Made by a program: the position numbers and the translations under genes
The notes under the pieces: model-generated
Database searches by the model: none
Told to the model about the DNA's origin: nothing
Seen by the model: only the letters and a program-made list of their open reading frames with translations
Shown here: positions 3,501 through 53,815 of the stretch, one piece after another
Layout: each line of letters opens with the position of its first letter
How positions within the stretch are numbered: the stretch's first letter is position 1
Assembly (NCBI RefSeq): GCF_024713975.1
Contig: NC_091094.1
Span: 19,490,501-19,554,500, forward strand
DNA from: Paralichthys olivaceus
Lineage: Eukaryota > Chordata > Actinopteri > Pleuronectiformes > Paralichthyidae
Direction of reading: 5' to 3'
DNA: 64,000 nucleotides

Positions 3501-4801
<1,301 letters not shown>

Positions 4802-10706: not shown

Positions 10707-10711
10707 GGCAG
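10707..10711. repeat. Target-site duplication, left copy
   Basis: GGCAG directly precedes the left LTR and is repeated exactly after the right LTR at 17091-17095. Five base pairs is the duplication length typical of Ty3/gypsy integrases. Confidence 0.85.
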
Positions 10712-10716
10712 TGTGA

Positions 10717-10963
10717 CGGAGCGCACGGCGTCTCGGCACGGCGTCTCGGCACGGCGTCTCGGCACGGCGTCTCGGCACGGCGTCTCGGCACGGCGTCTCG
10801 GCACGGCGTCTCGGCACGGCGTCTCGGCACGGCGTCTCGGCACGGCGTCTCGGCACGGCGTCTCGGCACGGCGTCTCGGCACGGCGTCTCGGCACGGCGT
10901 CTCGGCACGGCGTCTCGGCACGGCGTCTCGGCACGGCGTCTCGGCACGGCGTCTCGGCACGGC
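10717..10963 (+). repeat. 13-bp CpG-rich tandem array in U3 (18 copies)
   Basis: The unit GTCTCGGCACGGC recurs every 13 bp with first and last unit starts at 10730 and 10951, giving 18 near-perfect copies, each with three CpG sites. The array begins about 18 bp inside the LTR. The right LTR has only 3 copies (16296-16334). Long open frames in several phases across it are artefacts, because 13 is not a multiple of 3 and no stop occurs in the unit. Confidence 0.95.
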
Positions 10964-11144
10964 AGCAGTACACTGCCTCGTATACACGGGGGTGCCGGTG
11001 CACACGCCGACCGTCACAGCACTAATACACTGCCCCGTTTACATGTCTCATTATTACAAGAGTTAACTGTGTGCGTTACATCTTACCGGTGTTCAGTGTC
11101 GCGTCTGTGTTTGTTTGTGCGGGGCGAGCGGTTCCGGATGCGGA

Positions 11145-11152
11145 TATAAATA
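11145..11152 (+). promoter_or_regulatory. LTR TATA box
   Basis: TATAAATA sits within the LTR, about 180 bp after the tandem array and about 480 bp before the AATAAA signal, where a U3 promoter would be. The right LTR has the same motif near 16516. Confidence 0.65.
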
Positions 11153-11628
11153 GACGCTCGACTTCCGGAGTAACCGAAAGTGAACCCGCATTCTGTTTAA
11201 TATTGCTTCGGCTGTTGTATGTATAGTTGGCTACGCCTTCAAGTGTACGTGTGTTAAGTTTGTTACCATACATGGTTCAGTCATATGGAATTCAATTTAT
11301 TAGCTGTTAAAGCTTCTTGGTGTCACGTACCGGGGACACCCCTGTTTATTGTTGTATTTTGGTTTGCTCCAATTGTAGGGGCGGGCTTAGCCCCGATTTA
11401 AGCGTGTGGATTCATTCTGTCAGGGAGGCTGCTACTGGAAGGACGTAAGTCATAGAGCTCTCCCCAAAAACGGTTTTCTGCAAAAATATTTGGTTATTGA
11501 AGTTATTTGTTTGGGCCAACGTGCCTATTTATTTTCTCATTTCCCAGTGTTTGTTTTCCACTGGTTTGTTTTATTTTATATTTACTTTGAATAATTCTGC
11601 CTTGTCGGCCTTCAATTTGGGGTTAACA

Positions 11629-11634
11629 AATAAA
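11629..11634 (+). terminator. LTR polyadenylation signal
   Basis: AATAAA lies about 85 bp before the end of the LTR and is preserved in the right LTR, which would process the genomic transcript. Confidence 0.6.
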
Positions 11635-11721
11635 TGCCCTCTTACAACTGCAACTCCAAGTACTCCTGAGAGTTATTTCCATCGAGCTCAGTCGCTCATA
11701 GACATACCTACTTTTAACAAT

Positions 11722-11739
11722 TGGTGGCAGTGGTGGGAT
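11722..11739 (+). promoter_or_regulatory. Primer-binding site, probably tRNA-Leu
   Basis: The sequence TGGTGGCAGTGGTGGGAT begins two bases after the LTR and starts with TGG, the complement of a tRNA CCA end. Its reverse complement closely resembles the 3' end of vertebrate tRNA-Leu (AAG/TAG type), with about one mismatch as I recall that tRNA. The two-base gap matches the two-base gap between the polypurine tract and the right LTR. Confidence 0.6.
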
Positions 11740-11748
11740 CCAGTGGCC

Positions 11749-11766
11749 ATGAGCGGCTCTCAGTGA
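11749..11766 (+). other. Five-codon upstream ORF in retrotransposon leader
   Basis: ATG AGC GGC TCT CAG TGA ends seven bases before the gag-pol ATG. It is the first ATG after the primer-binding site and has a purine at -3, so it could modulate initiation at gag-pol by reinitiation or leaky scanning. Function is inferred. Confidence 0.35.
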
Positions 11767-11772
11767 GTAGAG

Positions 11773-14700
11773 ATGGAGACCAGAAGTGGAGTTACAGCAC
11801 CCCACGGGGCTGCCCCTGCAGGAGCCCCGGGAGCAAGGCCGAAATCTGCAGCATCGTCCAGTACGCACACTCCAGTGGTCGGAGACCGGACCGATCGGCT
11901 GGAGCACATTATGAAGTCGGTGGTGGACTGTCAGCGGAGGCAACAGGACCAGTTGGACGTAGAGGCACAGCGGCATGACCAGAGGTGGAAAGCCATGGAG
12001 CATCAATTCCACCAACTACAGAGCCTGGTGAGAGGTGAGACGGCGCGACAGTCACTCGTAGAGCTGCAGCAAGACAACCCGCCCATCTCCCGCCCCTCTT
12101 CGACTCAAGGGCTACTTCCTCATGTACCAGATCCACAACCACGCCCAGGTCTGGTACCAGCGTCCGGACTACAGAGCTCCCTGAACTCCTCTGCTATCAG
12201 CCTAGCCACACCTCCACATTTCCATCCGGGTTGGACGAACCCCAAGATGTCCCCATATGACGAGGACGAAGATATTGAACATTATTTAAAGACATTCGAA
12301 AGGCTCGCGGCAGCCAGTCAGTGGCCCTTAGATACATGGGCACTGTGTTTAGTGCCCTTGTTGAAAGGGAAAGCCAGAGCTGCTTTCGTAGCAATGAACA
12401 TTGAGGACAGTCAGGACTATGTCAAAGTGAAGCAAGCCGTTCTCAGGAAATTTGAGATCAATGCAGAGACCTATCGCCAGCGTTTCCGCTCCAAGACTAT
12501 CCTGGAGGGAGAGACGGCGAAGGAGCTTCGTGATCGACTCAAAGACCTCCTGGGGAAGTGGCTGGACCCAGAGACAAAGTCCAAGGAGCAGATCTGTGAC
12601 CAGGTCATACTGGAGCAGTTCCTGGGGATGCTTAACCAGGAGCTACAGATATGGGTGAGAGAACGCATCCCACACTCCTCGGCGGAAGCGGCGGAACTGG
12701 TGGAGACCTTCGTAGCCGCCAGACAGTCCAGACGGTGCTACCAGCTGAGCCCACACGACACCTGGAGAAGACCTCAGCAGACAGCCCAGCATGAGCCGCT
12801 GAAGACACCGGTCGGTAAGTCTGGGGGTGGTAGTGGTCGTGTGTTCAGTCCCTCTAACAGCCCCTATAGGCCCAGCCCCAGTGTGAAGCCCACTCCAGCT
12901 AGTACATCTCGGGTCCTGATCTGTCACCACTGCGGTCAGCAAGGCCACATTAGACCCCATTGCCCTGTGATGCAAGCCACTGACTCAAGACTGTGTTATC
13001 TCTCTGGCCCTAGTAAACACATAGCATTCACTCCATCTGATGTAACTGTCCCTGTCATGATAGGAGGCAAGACGCTGCAGGCTTTGGTTGACTCCGGTAG
13101 TAGTCAATCTTTTGTTCTTAAATCCTGTATGAAGTCTAATTATCAGCCAGTGGGTAGCGTTAGGGTCCGCTGCATCCATGGTGATGAGTCTAGGCATCAG
13201 ACTTGCGAGGTCCCCATTGTAATCAGCGGTCAAAAGTATTTGCTTACCGTAGGCCTCTTGGATAAGTGTCCCTATCCGGTGATTCTAGGCCAGGATGTGC
13301 CAGTCTTGACAGAGTTGCTGCAGAACGTTAACACAGCTTCTAGCTATGTTTTAACTAGGGCACAGGCCAGTAAGAATACAGAACTAGATGATTTAACAGA
13401 GTTACCGTATAGTGGCCATGGTGGCAAACCTAAAAAATCCAAGGCAGAGAAACGTAGGGCTAAAGTGGCGGGTACAGCAGTGCCAGAGAGTCTCGCACTA
13501 CCACCACTGGAGGGCAGTGAAGTCCTTGTGCCAGATTTTGGCAAATTACAGCAGGAAGACCCGACCCTTAGCTCTAGCTTTGCCTCGGCGAAAACCCCAG
13601 ATGAGGCTAGGGAAGACATCAAGGAGGGAGGTGTTTGTTTTGTCATGCGCAATGGCAAACTCTACAGGGAGAGCGCAGACAAGGAACAGTTAGTGGTCCC
13701 AGAGGCTCTGAGAGGCAGAGTACTACATCTGGGGCATAGCATTCCATGGGCAGGACACTTAGGCAAAGAAAAGTCTGAGAAAAGAATCGTGAACAGGTTT
13801 TACTGGCCAGGTTTTCAGAAGGACATAGCGGAATACTGCAAGTCATGTCCGGAGTGCCAATTGTCTGCTCGCTCGCATAGAAGCTTGAAAGCTCCTCTCA
13901 TCAGTCTCCCCATTATAGATGTGCCTTTCAGTCGCATAGCCATGGATGTAGTTGGTCCCCTAGAAAGGAGTAGGGCCGGCCACAGGTATATTCTAGTTAT
14001 ATGTGATTATGCAACACGTTACCCTGAAGCTTTCCCCCTCAGAAATACAAAAGCTAGGCAAGTAGCCAACTGCTTAATTCAACTATTCTCCCGGGTGGGG
14101 ATCCCCAAAGAGGTATTGACAGACCAGGGCACCAACTTCACCAGTAAGTCTTTAAAGCAGGTGTACTCAATGTTAGGGATCCGGGGCATCAAAACCACAC
14201 CCTATCACCCGCAGACTGACGGCTTGGTTGAGAGGTTCAATCAAACCCTGAAGTCCATGTTAAGAAAATTTGTGTCTGACACAGGAGCTGACTGGGATCA
14301 GTGGCTCCCCTATCTGCTTTTCTCCTACAGAGAGGTACCGCAGGCATCCACCGGGTTCTCCCCCTTCGAGCTTTTGTACGGCCGGGAGGTGAGAGGCCCG
14401 CTTGACATTCTCCGTGAGAGCTGGGAGGGGGACGCTCCTCACCAGCCGGTCAACATCGTGAGCTATGTCCTAAGGATGCGGGAAAAGCTGGAACAGCTGA
14501 GCTCCATGGCACATGACCACCTAGCCAAGGCCCAGACACGACAAAAGACATGGTATGACCAGACGGCACGCAGCCGCTCTTTCAATCCTGGAGAGAAAGT
14601 ACTGCTGTTGCTACCCTCATCTGAGAGCAGTCTGTTGGCTAAGTGGCAAGGGCCGTATGAAGTACTTCGCAAGGCCAGTGAGGTTACCTATGAAATTGCC

Positions 14701-16266
14701 ATGCCGGACAGACGTCGCTCTAAGCACCTCTACCATGTCAACCTACTAAAGAGATGGACTGACCGTCCGGCGGCCGTCCTAAACCAGCTGTGGGCGCGGA
14801 CCGTGGAACAGGAGGAAGAACCAGTGGAGCTGTATTTTCCTACAACTGGTGGTGAGTCTCCCTACCCCTCTGTCACCCACCTGACACCTGAACAGCAGGA
14901 GGACCTGCTGAGCATCATCCCCAGAGGCCTGTTCCGAGACCAGCCAGGGCGGACCGAGGTTATCACCCATGACATCCAGCTCACGTCTCCAGGTCCCATC
15001 CGGCAGACCGCTACCAGGGTTCCAGCGCGGCTGATATCTACGCTGAAGCAAGAGGTACAGGACATGCTGGAGATGGGGGTGATTGAGCCTTCGCACAGTG
15101 AGTGGTGCAGTCCAGTGGTCCTAGTTCCAAAAAAGGATGGCGGACTCCGCTTCTGTATTGACTTCTCAAAGCTGAACAGCATCTCGACATTTGACCCCTA
15201 TCCCATGCCCCGTGTGGACGAGATGGTGGAGCGCTTGGGGAGGGCAAAGTTCCTCAGCACTTTGGACCTGTGTAAGGGGTACTGGCAAGTACCACTCTCC
15301 CCCCGAGCACAGGAGCTGACTGCCTTCCGTGCCCCATCGGGTCTATACCAGTTCCGGGTCATGCCCTTTGGCCTTCATGGCGCCACAGCAAGCTTCCAGC
15401 GTCTCATGGATGAGGTGCTGAGAGGCGCTGAGGACTACGCCGCGGCCTATATTGATGACGTTATTATACATAGTTCCTCCTGGGCGGAGCATCTTCATCA
15501 CCTTCGCGATGTCTTCCGGCGGATCCATCAAGCAGGGCTGGTGGTGAACGCCAGCAAGTGCCAGCTCGCCAGGTCGGAGGTCTGTTACCTAGGCTACAGC
15601 CTGGGGAGCGGCACTATCCGACCTCAAATCGGCAAGGTGGACGCCATCCGCGATTCGCTGCCGCCCTCTACTAAAAAGGGGGTGAGGTCATTCCTGGGAT
15701 TAGTCGGCTGGTACCGACGTTTCATCCCTAACTTCTCCAGCCGGGCTGCACCCTTGACAGACCTAACTCGCAATACCAGTCCCAACAAGGTGGTTTTGAC
15801 AGCTGAGGGTGAAGCAGCTTTTCAGGACTTGAAAGAGAGCATGTGTCTTGATCCGGTGCTCCAGAGCCCAGACTTTTCCTTGCCCTTTACGGTACAGACA
15901 GACGCCTCAGGCCTTGGACTGGGGGCAGTGTTGTTGCAGGGTGAGGGGGAGGACAAAAGACCAGTGCAGTATGTGAGCCGTAAACTGTTCCCTCGCGAGA
16001 CCCGCTACTCCACTGTTGAGAAAGAGGCTTTGGCTATTAAGTGGGCCATTGACACTCTTAAGTACTATCTGGTGGGCAAAGACTTTGTCCTTGAGACGGA
16101 CCACAGGGCCCTACAGTGGCTCCATCGCATGAGGGATTTTAATTCAAGGATTACCCGTTGGCACCTGTCGTTGCAGCCCTACAAGTTTACGGTGAAGTAC
16201 AAGGCAGGCAAAGACAATGCTATTGCGGACTTCCTTTCGCGCCATGACATGGACGCTTTCTCTTAA
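11773..16266 (+). CDS. Single-frame Gag-Pol polyprotein (Gmr1-type)
   Basis: The 1497-aa polyprotein has no internal stop or frameshift. From the N-terminus: a Gag capsid region (about 150-340) whose 234-312 part resembles a SCAN domain (WLDPETKSKEQICDQ, then a leucine-rich helix); a CCHC zinc knuckle (C384, C387, H392, C397); an aspartic protease with DSG at 440-442; the integrase zinc-binding region (histidines near 655-662, C692 and C695); and the integrase core triad D725, D784, E820 with 35 residues between the last two. A GPY module at 960-962 follows, then reverse transcriptase (about 1090-1290, YIDD at 1226-1229) and RNase H (D1377, E1418, D1443). All catalytic residues I looked for are present. 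The start chosen is the first in-frame ATG, with G at -3 and +4. Integrase before reverse transcriptase is the hallmark of the Gmr1 group. Confidence 0.95.
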   Translation: METRSGVTAPHGAAPAGAPGARPKSAASSSTHTPVVGDRTDRLEHIMKSVVDCQRRQQDQLDVEAQRHDQRWKAMEHQFHQLQSLVRGETARQSLVELQQDNPPISRPSSTQGLLPHVPDPQPRPGLVPASGLQSSLNSSAISLATPPHFHPGWTNPKMSPYDEDEDIEHYLKTFERLAAASQWPLDTWALCLVPLLKGKARAAFVAMNIEDSQDYVKVKQAVLRKFEINAETYRQRFRSKTILEGETAKELRDRLKDLLGKWLDPETKSKEQICDQVILEQFLGMLNQELQIWVRERIPHSSAEAAELVETFVAARQSRRCYQLSPHDTWRRPQQTAQHEPLKTPVGKSGGGSGRVFSPSNSPYRPSPSVKPTPASTSRVLICHHCGQQGHIRPHCPVMQATDSRLCYLSGPSKHIAFTPSDVTVPVMIGGKTLQALVDSGSSQSFVLKSCMKSNYQPVGSVRVRCIHGDESRHQTCEVPIVISGQKYLLTVGLLDKCPYPVILGQDVPVLTELLQNVNTASSYVLTRAQASKNTELDDLTELPYSGHGGKPKKSKAEKRRAKVAGTAVPESLALPPLEGSEVLVPDFGKLQQEDPTLSSSFASAKTPDEAREDIKEGGVCFVMRNGKLYRESADKEQLVVPEALRGRVLHLGHSIPWAGHLGKEKSEKRIVNRFYWPGFQKDIAEYCKSCPECQLSARSHRSLKAPLISLPIIDVPFSRIAMDVVGPLERSRAGHRYILVICDYATRYPEAFPLRNTKARQVANCLIQLFSRVGIPKEVLTDQGTNFTSKSLKQVYSMLGIRGIKTTPYHPQTDGLVERFNQTLKSMLRKFVSDTGADWDQWLPYLLFSYREVPQASTGFSPFELLYGREVRGPLDILRESWEGDAPHQPVNIVSYVLRMREKLEQLSSMAHDHLAKAQTRQKTWYDQTARSRSFNPGEKVLLLLPSSESSLLAKWQGPYEVLRKASEVTYEIAMPDRRRSKHLYHVNLLKRWTDRPAAVLNQLWARTVEQEEEPVELYFPTTGGESPYPSVTHLTPEQQEDLLSIIPRGLFRDQPGRTEVITHDIQLTSPGPIRQTATRVPARLISTLKQEVQDMLEMGVIEPSHSEWCSPVVLVPKKDGGLRFCIDFSKLNSISTFDPYPMPRVDEMVERLGRAKFLSTLDLCKGYWQVPLSPRAQELTAFRAPSGLYQFRVMPFGLHGATASFQRLMDEVLRGAEDYAAAYIDDVIIHSSSWAEHLHHLRDVFRRIHQAGLVVNASKCQLARSEVCYLGYSLGSGTIRPQIGKVDAIRDSLPPSTKKGVRSFLGLVGWYRRFIPNFSSRAAPLTDLTRNTSPNKVVLTAEGEAAFQDLKESMCLDPVLQSPDFSLPFTVQTDASGLGLGAVLLQGEGEDKRPVQYVSRKLFPRETRYSTVEKEALAIKWAIDTLKYYLVGKDFVLETDHRALQWLHRMRDFNSRITRWHLSLQPYKFTVKYKAGKDNAIADFLSRHDMDAFS

Positions 16267-16275
16267 GGAGGGGGG
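16265..16275 (+). other. Polypurine tract
   Basis: AAGGAGGGGGG follows the gag-pol stop codon directly and lies two bases before the right LTR, the position needed for plus-strand priming. Confidence 0.8.
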
Positions 16276-16277
16276 TG

Positions 16278-17090
16278 TGTGACGGAGCGCACGGCGTCTC
16301 GGCACGGCGTCTCGGCACGGCGTCTCGTCACGGCAGCAGTACACTGCCTCGTATACACGGGGGTGCCGGTGCACACGCCGACCGTCACAGCACTAATACA
16401 CTGCCCCGTTTACATGTCTCATTATTACAAGAGTTAACTGTGTGCGTTACATCTTACCGGTGTTCAGTGTCGCGTCTGTGTTTGTTTGTGCGGGGCGAGC
16501 GGTTCCGGATGCGGATATAAATAGACGCTCGACTTCCGGAGTAACCGAAAGTGAACCCGCATTCTGTTTAATATTGCTTCGGCTGTTGTATGTATAGTTG
16601 GCTACGCCTTCAAGTGTACGTGTGTTAAGTTTGTTACCATACATGGTTCAGTCATATGGAATTCAATTTATTAGCTGTTAAAGCTTCTTGGTGTCACGTA
16701 CCGGGGACACCCCTGTTTATTGTTGTATTTTGGTTTGCTCCAATTGTAGGGGCGGGCTTAGCCCCGATTTAAGCGTGTGGATTCATTCTGTCAGGGAGGC
16801 TGCTACTGGAAGGACGTAAGTCATAGAGCTCTCCCCAAAAACGGTTTTCTGCAAAAATATTTGGTTATTGAAGTTATTTGTTTGGGCCAACGTGCCTATT
16901 TATTTTCTCATTTCCCAGTGTTTGTTTTCCACTGGTTTGTTTTATTTTATATTTACTTTGAATAATTCTGCCTTGTCGGCCTTCAATTTGGGGTTAACAA
17001 ATAAATGCCCTCTTACAACTGCAACTCCAAGTACTCCTGAGAGTTATTTCCATCGAGCTCAGTCGCTCATAGACATACCTACCTTTAACA
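16278..17090 (+). repeat. Right (3') LTR, 813 bp
   Basis: It is nearly identical to the left LTR outside the array. The differences I found are a G/T change in the last repeat unit (CTCGTCAC) and a T/C change near the end (CTACCTTTAACA). It contains three 13-bp units instead of 18. The GGCAG target duplication follows at 17091-17095. Confidence 0.93.
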
Positions 17091-17095
17091 GGCAG
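17091..17095. repeat. Target-site duplication, right copy
   Basis: GGCAG follows the terminal CA of the right LTR and equals 10707-10711. Confidence 0.85.
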
Positions 17096-52800: not shown

Positions 52801-53815
52801 TCTCAAAACTATCCTTTTTGTCATATGAGTGGCCCTAATACTCTGTTATAACTTTGAAGAATAGGGAGCAGTTCCTCTTCCACAGAGCCTGCTGTGTTGC
52901 TCTACCATGTTTATACAGTAGCTCACAATGGACAAATCAAACACTCTTAGAGAGGGCCTTTTGAATTTTTATGTTACCTCAAAACCACTGTTAGCTCTCC
53001 TACAAGCTTAAAAGGGGAGGGTGATGGAAGTGGTCTTAAGTTGGTTGGTTGCTGAACTACCCTTCTAAAGATTCAGATCATAATTTCCCAGTGTGCTAAT
53101 GTTGCACACACCATCGTCTCCTGTGTCTAACTCCCGATGCCTCGTGTCTTTCAGTGATGATGACTTTGACATGTCCAGATACTCCTCATCAGGATACTCC
53201 TCAGCCGAGGTGAGATGTCTGAGGGACCAGGTATCTATACACACGTTATATTGATAGTCAATACAGCTTCACCCCACCAGTGTCACCACCTGATCACCCA
53301 GTCCCATGTTCACACCAGGTATATGTGCACCCATTAAAAAAATAAATGTACAGGCTCTGCCCAGCATTCACACAACAGTTGTCTGTAATGATTTATCCCC
53401 ATTTCTCATTCACACAGGTTGATCCCCGTTCATGTTTTCCACTTGGAGTATCTTATGTTTGGTTTTTTCTCTCTTGCTTCCTCCATTACCACCTAAGACC
53501 CGTTTGTTTCCTATGTGGCTGCGTTCTGTTTCTGTAAATATAATTCATTTGGATCACCCCAACAAAAAAAATGTGAATAGGCAAAAAAAGGTCATTCCTA
53601 GCTCTAAGAATTCGTGCAGAAGCTCTGCTGACATCTTCTTTCTTTGGCTTCTGCAGCAGATCAACCAGGACCTGAACATCCAGCTCCTAAAGGATGGCTA
53701 CCGGCTCGATGAGATCCCAGACGACGAGGACCTGGATCTGATCCCCCCCAAAGCAGTGAACCCCACCTGCATGTGCTGTCAGGCTGCTCCCTCCACAGCC
53801 TGTCAAATCCAGTAG
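43853..53815 (+). CDS. fam219a: FAM219A family protein
   Basis: Six coding exons join in frame to 181 aa (human FAM219A about 185): 43853-43912, 49199-49295, 50489-50582, 51556-51636, 53155-53209 and 53657-53815. The N-terminus MMEEIDRFQVP, the MNYKPSPLQVQ block, a basic segment EKQRDLARKGS with NQQPKKN, then VVPNKGYSSLDQSPDEKPLV, a serine-rich DDDFDMSRYSSSGYSS stretch and a C-terminus with CMCCQ are all recognisable, so the protein is complete. It has no known catalytic domain; the family is conserved, largely disordered and of unknown function. Intron 1 (5.3 kb) is large. Exon 6 has tandem acceptors (ctgcagcag), which may add or drop one glutamine. The gene shares a promoter region with dnai1, as in the human arrangement. 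Confidence 0.95.
45290..45375 (-). repeat. Retroposon tail-like fragment
   Basis: 'acttgtatagcacatttcaagcttaagcacttttcaaag' is the reverse-strand form of the 'aagtgcttt...tatacaaat' tail found on many teleost LINE/SINE copies. It is in fam219a intron 1. The family is not assigned. Confidence 0.35.
46180..46550. repeat. Probable dispersed DNA element in fam219a intron 1
   Basis: It contains 'cctgatactgattccaatgcc', 'agtaccgatcggattccattgc' and an end 'ggaacatctcta', wording I associate with a common teleost non-autonomous DNA transposon. A short related piece (atcagaatcagtatcgg ... atcatctctata) occurs at 32320-32370. Ends are not precisely defined. Confidence 0.35.
47050..47397 (+). mobile_element. 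Complete CCTCCRCCAA-type TIR element
   Basis: The 348-bp element starts ACCTCCACCAAAGAGG and ends CCTTGGTGGAGGT, which are inverted ends over about 13 bp. The interior ('agcaggattatgctaaaactac', 'gatcttgatggcaaaaaaa', 'gaggactgatatttgtgagtg') matches a very common teleost non-autonomous element as I remember it. It lies in fam219a intron 1. Confidence 0.65.
48790..48905 (-). repeat. Retroposon tail-like fragment
   Basis: 'agatttatttattgtaacacattaaaaac' followed by 'gttgaaccaaaatgcttgaca' is the reverse-strand 3' end of a teleost LINE/SINE-type copy. It is in fam219a intron 1, just upstream of exon 2. Confidence 0.4.

What the first reader, a model, noticed from the sequence alone, without database searches (positions are those of the whole stretch)
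11773..16266. Intact gypsy element with integrase ahead of reverse transcriptase
The order read directly is protease (DSG 440) - integrase (D725, D784, E820) - reverse transcriptase (YIDD 1226) - RNase H (D1377, E1418, D1443). Ty3/gypsy elements normally carry integrase last. The Gmr1-like group of deuterostomes is the known exception. An intact, single-frame, recently inserted copy is useful because it can show how this rearranged polyprotein is processed.
Basis: partly seen in the sequence, partly recalled or inferred. Interest (0 to 1): 0.75.

Follow-up and report, generated by a model that had tools for sequence, protein, structure and literature searches.

The report
Gypsy retrotransposon with integrase before polymerase
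This is a young, intact jumping element whose DNA-inserting enzyme precedes its copying enzyme, an order already known for the Gmr1 group, so it is a good new example and not a new kind of thing.

Summary
RT and IN each match Ty3 best, in reverse order along one Ty3 chain. The element is complete: LTRs 10712-11719 and 16278-17090, target duplication GGCAG, primer site, polypurine tract; the LTRs differ at 2 of 813 aligned sites plus a 195-bp array expansion. In the same genome 53 IN-RT pair rows have RT 48-100% identical to the window, and 37 RT-IN rows 37-43%. In RT and IN trees the sampled IN-RT elements are one group, far from copia. This is the published Gmr1-like arrangement: a new member of a known kind. 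Gmr1 itself was not available for the trees, and how the polyprotein is cut cannot be read from sequence. Side result: a deleted family copy captured the whole primer tRNA-Leu(UAG), identical to 3 of 9 fetched genomic genes except at position 58, the m1A site.

The parts
10707..10711 (.). target-site duplication GGCAG, left copy
10712..11719 (+). 5' LTR, 1008 bp, TGTGACGG...TTTTAACA
10723..10963 (+). 13-bp tandem array GCACGGCGTCTCG, 18.5 copies, upstream of the TATA-like box in the 5' LTR
11145..11152 (+). TATA box-like TATAAATA in the 5' LTR (3' LTR copy at 16516)
   Evidence: role inferred
11629..11634 (+). polyadenylation-like AATAAA in the 5' LTR (3' LTR copy at 17000)
   Evidence: role inferred
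11722..11740 (+). primer binding site TGGTGGCAGTGGTGGGATC, 2 nt after the LTR; its first 18 nt complement mature tRNA-Leu, and base 19 is C where genomic tRNA-Leu A58 would call for T
11773..16266 (+). single gag-pol open reading frame, 1497 aa
12466..12726 (+). SCAN-type capsid C-terminal domain
12922..12966 (+). CCHC zinc knuckle (nucleocapsid)
   Evidence: Pfam hit below cut-off, motif literal
13048..13299 (+). aspartic protease (DSG 440)
   Evidence: Pfam hit below cut-off
13696..13869 (+). integrase H2C2 zinc-binding domain
13924..14211 (+). integrase catalytic core by Pfam rve (D725, D784; E820 lies just past the rve match)
14650..14754 (+). integrase C-terminal p58_C/SH3 region, with the GPY motif at aa 960
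14764..14874 (+). variable IN-RT linker (about aa 998-1034), length differs between families
15124..15600 (+). reverse transcriptase (YIDD 1226)
15799..16182 (+). RNase H (D1377, E1418, D1443)
16265..16275 (+). polypurine tract AAGGAGGGGGG, overlapping the stop codon, 2 nt before the 3' LTR
16278..17090 (+). 3' LTR, 813 bp
16289..16334 (+). 13-bp array in the 3' LTR, 3.5 copies
17091..17095 (.). target-site duplication GGCAG, right copy

Best explanation
It is a complete, recently inserted Ty3/gypsy LTR retrotransposon of the Gmr1-like type, in which integrase sits between protease and RT. Shown from sequence: order, single frame, LTRs, target duplication, primer site, polypurine tract. Inferred cycle: RNA starts in the LTR; one Gag-Pol is made without frameshift; protease cuts the parts apart, with the variable linker between the integrase GPY module and RT (aa about 998-1034) as the likely cut between integrase and RT; mature tRNA-Leu primes minus-strand DNA at a primer site 2 nt inside the LTR and plus-strand DNA starts at a polypurine tract 2 nt outside the other LTR, so the linear DNA carries 2 extra bases at each end; integrase removes them to leave CA ends and inserts with 5-bp duplications. 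The changed order therefore seems to alter polyprotein layout only, not the chemistry.
For: Order and domains; the same IN-then-RT Pfam order in pieces of three other families. RT/RNase H best match Ty3 (E 2e-84; Ty3-G polyprotein 7q5b residues 613-1008) and IN best matches 7q5b residues 1086-1451 (E 2e-35), so the order relative to Ty3 is reversed on one reference chain. Complete ends and target duplication; two more family copies have 5-bp duplications (ATGTG, AACAC) and two deleted ones GGGTG and ATGAT. In the genome 53 IN-RT rows (52 elements) and 37 RT-IN rows separate without overlap by RT identity, 48-100% against 37-43%. IN-RT elements are one side of a branch in RT and IN trees: 93/94 and 77/77 with all rows, 96/98 and 100/99 with two long rows removed. 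34 of 61 SCAN matches lie upstream of an IN-RT pair and 0 of 61 upstream of an RT-IN pair. Primer: the captured tRNA and an exact 18-mer primer site found 7 times, 6 of them in family copies, reversed control 0.
Against: No Gmr1 reference was in the trees. The IN tree with all rows supports the grouping only at 77/77. The protease and CCHC hits are below Pfam's cut-offs. 19 of the 53 IN-RT pair rows have no SCAN match upstream in the list (one of them the second row of one element), and 27 of 61 SCAN matches lie beside no pair. Processing, transcription and mobility are not shown. A structure prediction of IN-RT failed (mean pLDDT 42). Low conservation reaches from the linker well into the N-terminal part of RT (to about aa 1100), so the linker is not a sharply bounded cut site. 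The exact primer-site 18-mer is confined to this family and one unexamined place, so it does not unite the IN-RT families. Three of the 5 family copies with LTRs at both ends are damaged: C7:26.42 and C5:25.22 lack internal parts, and in C2:29.29 the frame from the ATG stops after 62 codons. C24:4.47 shows only one LTR and a shorter open frame.
Confidence: 0.93

Rival explanations
1. An independent reshuffling of an ordinary gypsy element: the order was reached separately from Gmr1 by recombination.
For: Gmr1 itself was not in the trees, and the IN tree has no outgroup.
Against: All 21 sampled IN-RT rows, several families down to about 50% RT identity, form one side of a branch in both RT and IN trees, and SCAN-type gag accompanies IN-RT pairs and not RT-IN pairs in the lists searched; in frogs SCAN was reported in over half of Gmr elements and only there (PMC4131045, passages).
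Confidence: 0.05
2. A Ty1/copia element misread as gypsy.
For: Same IN-RT order as copia.
Against: RT is RVT_1 and RVT_2 is not in the list up to E 1; closest solved relative is Ty3; two copia RTs of the same genome are split off by a 100/100 branch.
Confidence: 0.005
3. Assembly or recombination artefact joining pieces of two elements.
For: LTRs differ by 195 bp in length.
Against: A second copy on C7 has the same open frame length and order with 2 differences in 1905 bases of IN-RT, and the target duplication matches on both sides; the length difference is 15 whole units of a 13-bp array that also varies in other copies.
Confidence: 0.01

Closest known systems
Gmr1-like Ty3/gypsy elements (Gmr1 of Atlantic cod; Goodwin and Poulter 2002 and Butler et al. 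2001 seen only as titles in reference lists)
   Same: Integrase upstream of RT; RT and IN of gypsy type; SCAN-type gag; apparently vertebrate host (inferred)
   Different: Sequence distance to Gmr1 not measured; no reference was available
Gmr1-Gmr4 of Tetraodontiformes (PMC11117352, passages with part of Table 2)
   Same: Single Gag-Pol frame of 1506-1634 aa (here 1497); young copies, Gmr1 judged possibly active by the authors
   Different: Their LTRs are 337-518 bp, here 813 and 1008 bp with a 13-bp array; the passages seen do not state their domain order
Ty3 of yeast
   Same: Closest solved RT/RNase H and IN by sequence
   Different: RT precedes IN in Ty3 (residues 613-1008 against 1086-1451 of 7q5b)
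Ty1/copia
   Same: IN before RT (general knowledge)
   Different: RT belongs to RVT_2; separated by a 100/100 branch in the RT tree

Membership tests
Ty3/gypsy (Metaviridae) | RT of RVT_1/Ty3 type, outside copia | tested here: met
Ty3/gypsy (Metaviridae) | Integrase with H2C2, DDE core and GPY/F C-terminal module | tested here: met
Ty3/gypsy (Metaviridae) | usual order PR-RT-RH-IN | tested here: not met
   this is the defining exception of the Gmr1-like group within gypsy
Gmr1-like gypsy group | IN upstream of RT with gypsy-type RT | tested here: met
   definition in PMC8220671 and PMC3587641 passages
Gmr1-like gypsy group | SCAN-type gag domain (reported for over half of frog Gmr elements) | tested here: met
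Gmr1-like gypsy group | RT/IN clade that contains Gmr1 itself | not testable with these tools
   no Gmr1 reference held; the sampled IN-RT elements of this genome form one group
Ty1/copia (Pseudoviridae) | RVT_2 reverse transcriptase | tested here: not met

The most novel reading that the evidence does not exclude
The deleted sister copy at C7:26416006-26419036 is a genomic fossil of primer read-through: plus-strand DNA copied the whole mature tRNA-Leu(UAG) instead of stopping at m1A58, put C opposite m1A58 (tRNA position 58 reads G there and A in all 50 other genomic matches to the searched tRNA end), then jumped to the RT region by 3-nt microhomology and was integrated. If right, the C at base 19 of the primer site in the 5 other copies seen may itself be an older trace of the same misreading. 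A Gmr1-type element would thus carry a written record of which tRNA, and which tRNA modification, it used.
Probability: 0.5. Interest if true: 0.5.

Novelty: new member of a known kind. Interest (0 to 1): 0.34.

Why it matters
The domain order is a published exception, named in the title of a 2002 paper (seen in reference lists), so the main finding is confirmatory. Its value is practical: one genome with several IN-RT families and many RT-IN families side by side allows clean comparison of linkers and ends. It shows that the ends (2-nt offsets, CA termini, 5-bp duplications) look like those of other retroelements despite the moved integrase. The captured primer tRNA gives direct genomic evidence for the primer of this family, which otherwise is inferred from complementarity alone.

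Tried and rejected
Structure prediction of the IN-RT segment from a 13-row alignment gave mean pLDDT 42 and pTM 0.26; no fold search was run on it. Its best stretch, ten-residue blocks of 52-83, is the integrase C-terminal barrel, so it says nothing firm about the linker. A Ty1/copia origin was tested and rejected. A search for papers on Gmr1 and polyprotein processing listed 7, none on this topic by title or start of abstract. Searches for captured primer tRNA in retrotransposons (6 papers; 0; 3; 0) listed no report of one by title or start of abstract; they were narrow and cover open-licence papers only, so absence in print is not shown. The Troyka paper (PMC12440569, passages) was looked at for other domain orders and gave nothing used here. 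Rfam at gathering thresholds gave nothing in the window. No age in years is given, since no calibrated rate for this genome was at hand. The first LTR script forgot to reverse minus-strand loci and was redone; the first tRNA comparison was out of register by the CCA and was redone.

Full report
Observation. The frame 11773-16266 is 1497 codons without a stop. A piece with RT and RNase H matches Ty3 RT best (4ol8, E 2e-84) and then residues 613-1008 of the Ty3-G polyprotein 7q5b; a piece with integrase matches residues 1086-1451 of 7q5b best (E 2e-35). So the same two enzymes lie in opposite order here and in Ty3.

The whole element. LTRs are 10712-11719 and 16278-17090, flanked by GGCAG on both sides. 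Over 813 aligned positions they differ at 2 sites and by one gap of 195 bases. The gap is 15 units of a 13-bp array: 18.5 copies in the 5' LTR and 3.5 in the 3' LTR. One of the two substitutions is inside the array; over the 750-base core there is 1. A TATA-like box and AATAAA are in each LTR. The primer site begins 2 bases after the 5' LTR and the purine tract AAGGAGGGGGG ends 2 bases before the 3' LTR. By established retroviral logic this implies 2 extra bases at both DNA ends, removed by integrase to expose CA; this is inference.

Host. Neighbouring frames match CD225 and FAM219A. That it is a vertebrate, probably a bony fish, is my inference from this and from the genome size.

Family copies. 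The LTR core finds 15 places in the genome. They reduce to 6 insertions by their flanks: the window; C7:26.72 (duplication ATGTG; a solo LTR with the same flanks lies 25 kb away, so the locus was duplicated); C7:26.42 (GGGTG; three solo LTRs share its flanks); C5:25.22 (ATGAT, lacking internal parts); C2:29.29 (AACAC); C24:4.47 (one LTR found). Exact array units in the 15 LTRs are 18, 4, 4, 3, 3, 2, 2, 2, 2, 2, 2, 1, 1, 1 and 0. Copies of the GGGTG insertion have 2, 1 and 3 exact units in the three solo LTRs and 2 and 2 in the deleted element, so the array changes after insertion. The window's 5' expansion is the outlier; since new U3 is copied from the 3' LTR, it would not be passed on (inference). 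LTR pairs differ at 2/813, 0/800, 3/799, 0/799 and 6/766 aligned sites in the five copies with two LTRs. The C7:26.72 copy has the same open frame length and 2 of 1905 bases different in IN-RT; C2:29.29 has 22, with pS 0.027 and pN 0.007. In C2:29.29 the frame from the ATG stops after 62 codons.

Order census. With the window's integrase (116 matches; 115 candidates scored of 785) and RT (150 matches; 150 scored of 590) as queries, 90 integrase rows pair with an RT row within 3 kb on the same strand and 26 do not. 53 rows (52 elements, one counted twice) are IN-RT and 37 RT-IN. RT identity to the window is 48-100% in the first group and 37-43% in the second, with no overlap. Counts are lower bounds because only the best candidates are scored. 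SCAN: of 61 matches 34 lie upstream of an IN-RT pair, 0 upstream of an RT-IN pair, 27 beside no listed pair; 34 of the 53 IN-RT rows have one and 19 have none. In frogs a SCAN domain was found in over half of Gmr elements and only in them (PMC4131045, passages), and the SCAN family is said to derive from a Gmr1-like gag (PMC3424704, passages). The window's domain matches mammalian SCAN proteins of known structure. Pieces of three other IN-RT families show H2C2, rve, p58_C and RVT_1 in this order.

Trees. 20 IN-RT loci and 20 RT-IN loci chosen by hand from the census, plus the window and two copia RTs, were used (41 integrase rows, 43 RT rows; none dropped). IN-RT forms one side of a branch: RT 93/94, IN 77/77; copia RT is split off at 100/100. 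Without the two longest rows (L092, L093) support is 96/98 and 100/99. For RT the copia rows serve as outgroup; the IN tree has none.

Junction. Between the integrase GPY module and RT the 14 other rows and the window show a stretch (about aa 998-1034) that is poorly conserved (0.1-0.2 of positions per 20-residue block in 1002-1041) and differs in length by tens of residues. The integrase side rises to 0.35-0.55 in some blocks, while on the RT side conservation stays at 0.2-0.3 to about aa 1100 and then exceeds 0.5. That fits a cleaved or flexible linker; it is not proof of cleavage. Structure prediction did not help.

Primer. In the deleted copy at C7:26416006-26419036 the DNA after the LTR and its 2-base spacer reads as the complement of a complete tRNA-Leu(UAG) including CCA (85 nt, ARAGORN), then continues at window base 14882 in the RT region, with ACC shared at the join. 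The copy has a target duplication GGGTG. Of 51 genomic matches to the tRNA end with either purine at positions 57 and 58, 50 are on C9 with A at position 58 and only the captured one has G. Of 9 of these genes fetched, 3 are identical to the captured 82 nt except at that base, which is nucleotide 19 from the 3' end of the CCA tRNA, that is position 58; the other 6 differ at that base and at 1 to 5 more; none of the 9 encodes CCA. m1A58 is the known stop for plus-strand strong-stop DNA, and unmodified tRNA is copied to its 5' end in vitro (PMC13191261, passages; for HIV-1). Two readings fit: misincorporation of C opposite m1A58, or one base copied from the element's own primer site, which has C at base 19 in the 5 other copies seen, before switching back to the tRNA. 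A random later mutation at just this base is unlikely given LTR differences of 3/799 (roughly 0.2% per site since insertion, my estimate). By title only (reference list of PMC5371799) the primer tRNA sequence is said not to be inherited in Ty1.

Known or new. PMC8220671, PMC3587641 and PMC2774666 (passages) describe Gmr1-like elements as gypsy elements with integrase upstream of RT or copia-like order; hosts named in the passages seen include cod, gilt-head bream, a tunicate, crustaceans and an annelid, and Gmr elements are also reported in frogs (PMC4131045) and Tetraodontiform fishes, there with a single Gag-Pol frame of 1506-1634 aa (PMC11117352). The window element fits the description in the respects tested. 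It is a new member of a known kind.

Noticed in passing
L020 1414-1498 (G000:C7:26416006-26419036 element): Complete primer tRNA-Leu(UAG) captured behind the primer site of a deleted family copy, joined directly to the RT region; its only mismatch to 3 of 9 fetched genomic genes is at position 58.
   Followed up: yes
window 10723-10963 and 16289-16334: 13-bp array with 18.5 and 3.5 copies in the two LTRs of one element; 0-4 exact units in the other 13 LTRs found. Possible enhancer-like repeat; length changes after insertion.
   Followed up: partly
window 11749-11766: Five-codon upstream ORF (ATG AGC GGC TCT CAG TGA) ending 6 bases before the main ATG; present in the window and the 4 other copies whose leader was seen, one with a silent change.
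   Followed up: partly
window aa 552-567 (13426-13473): Strongly basic stretch KPKKSKAEKRRAKVAG between protease and integrase; could be a nuclear localisation signal.
   Followed up: no
G000:C7 26.41-26.75 Mb: Local segmental duplications shown by shared flanks of full-length, deleted and solo-LTR copies of the same insertions.
   Followed up: partly
G000:C9:6339504-6398997: Cluster of 49 matches to a tRNA-Leu 3' end, with UAG and AAG anticodons among those fetched.
   Followed up: no
G000:C5:24306397-24306414: A seventh exact primer-site 18-mer outside the known family copies; not examined.
   Followed up: no
window 4073-4567 and 53432-53812: Neighbouring frames with CD225 (IFITM-like) and FAM219A matches; the element lies between them.
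   Followed up: no
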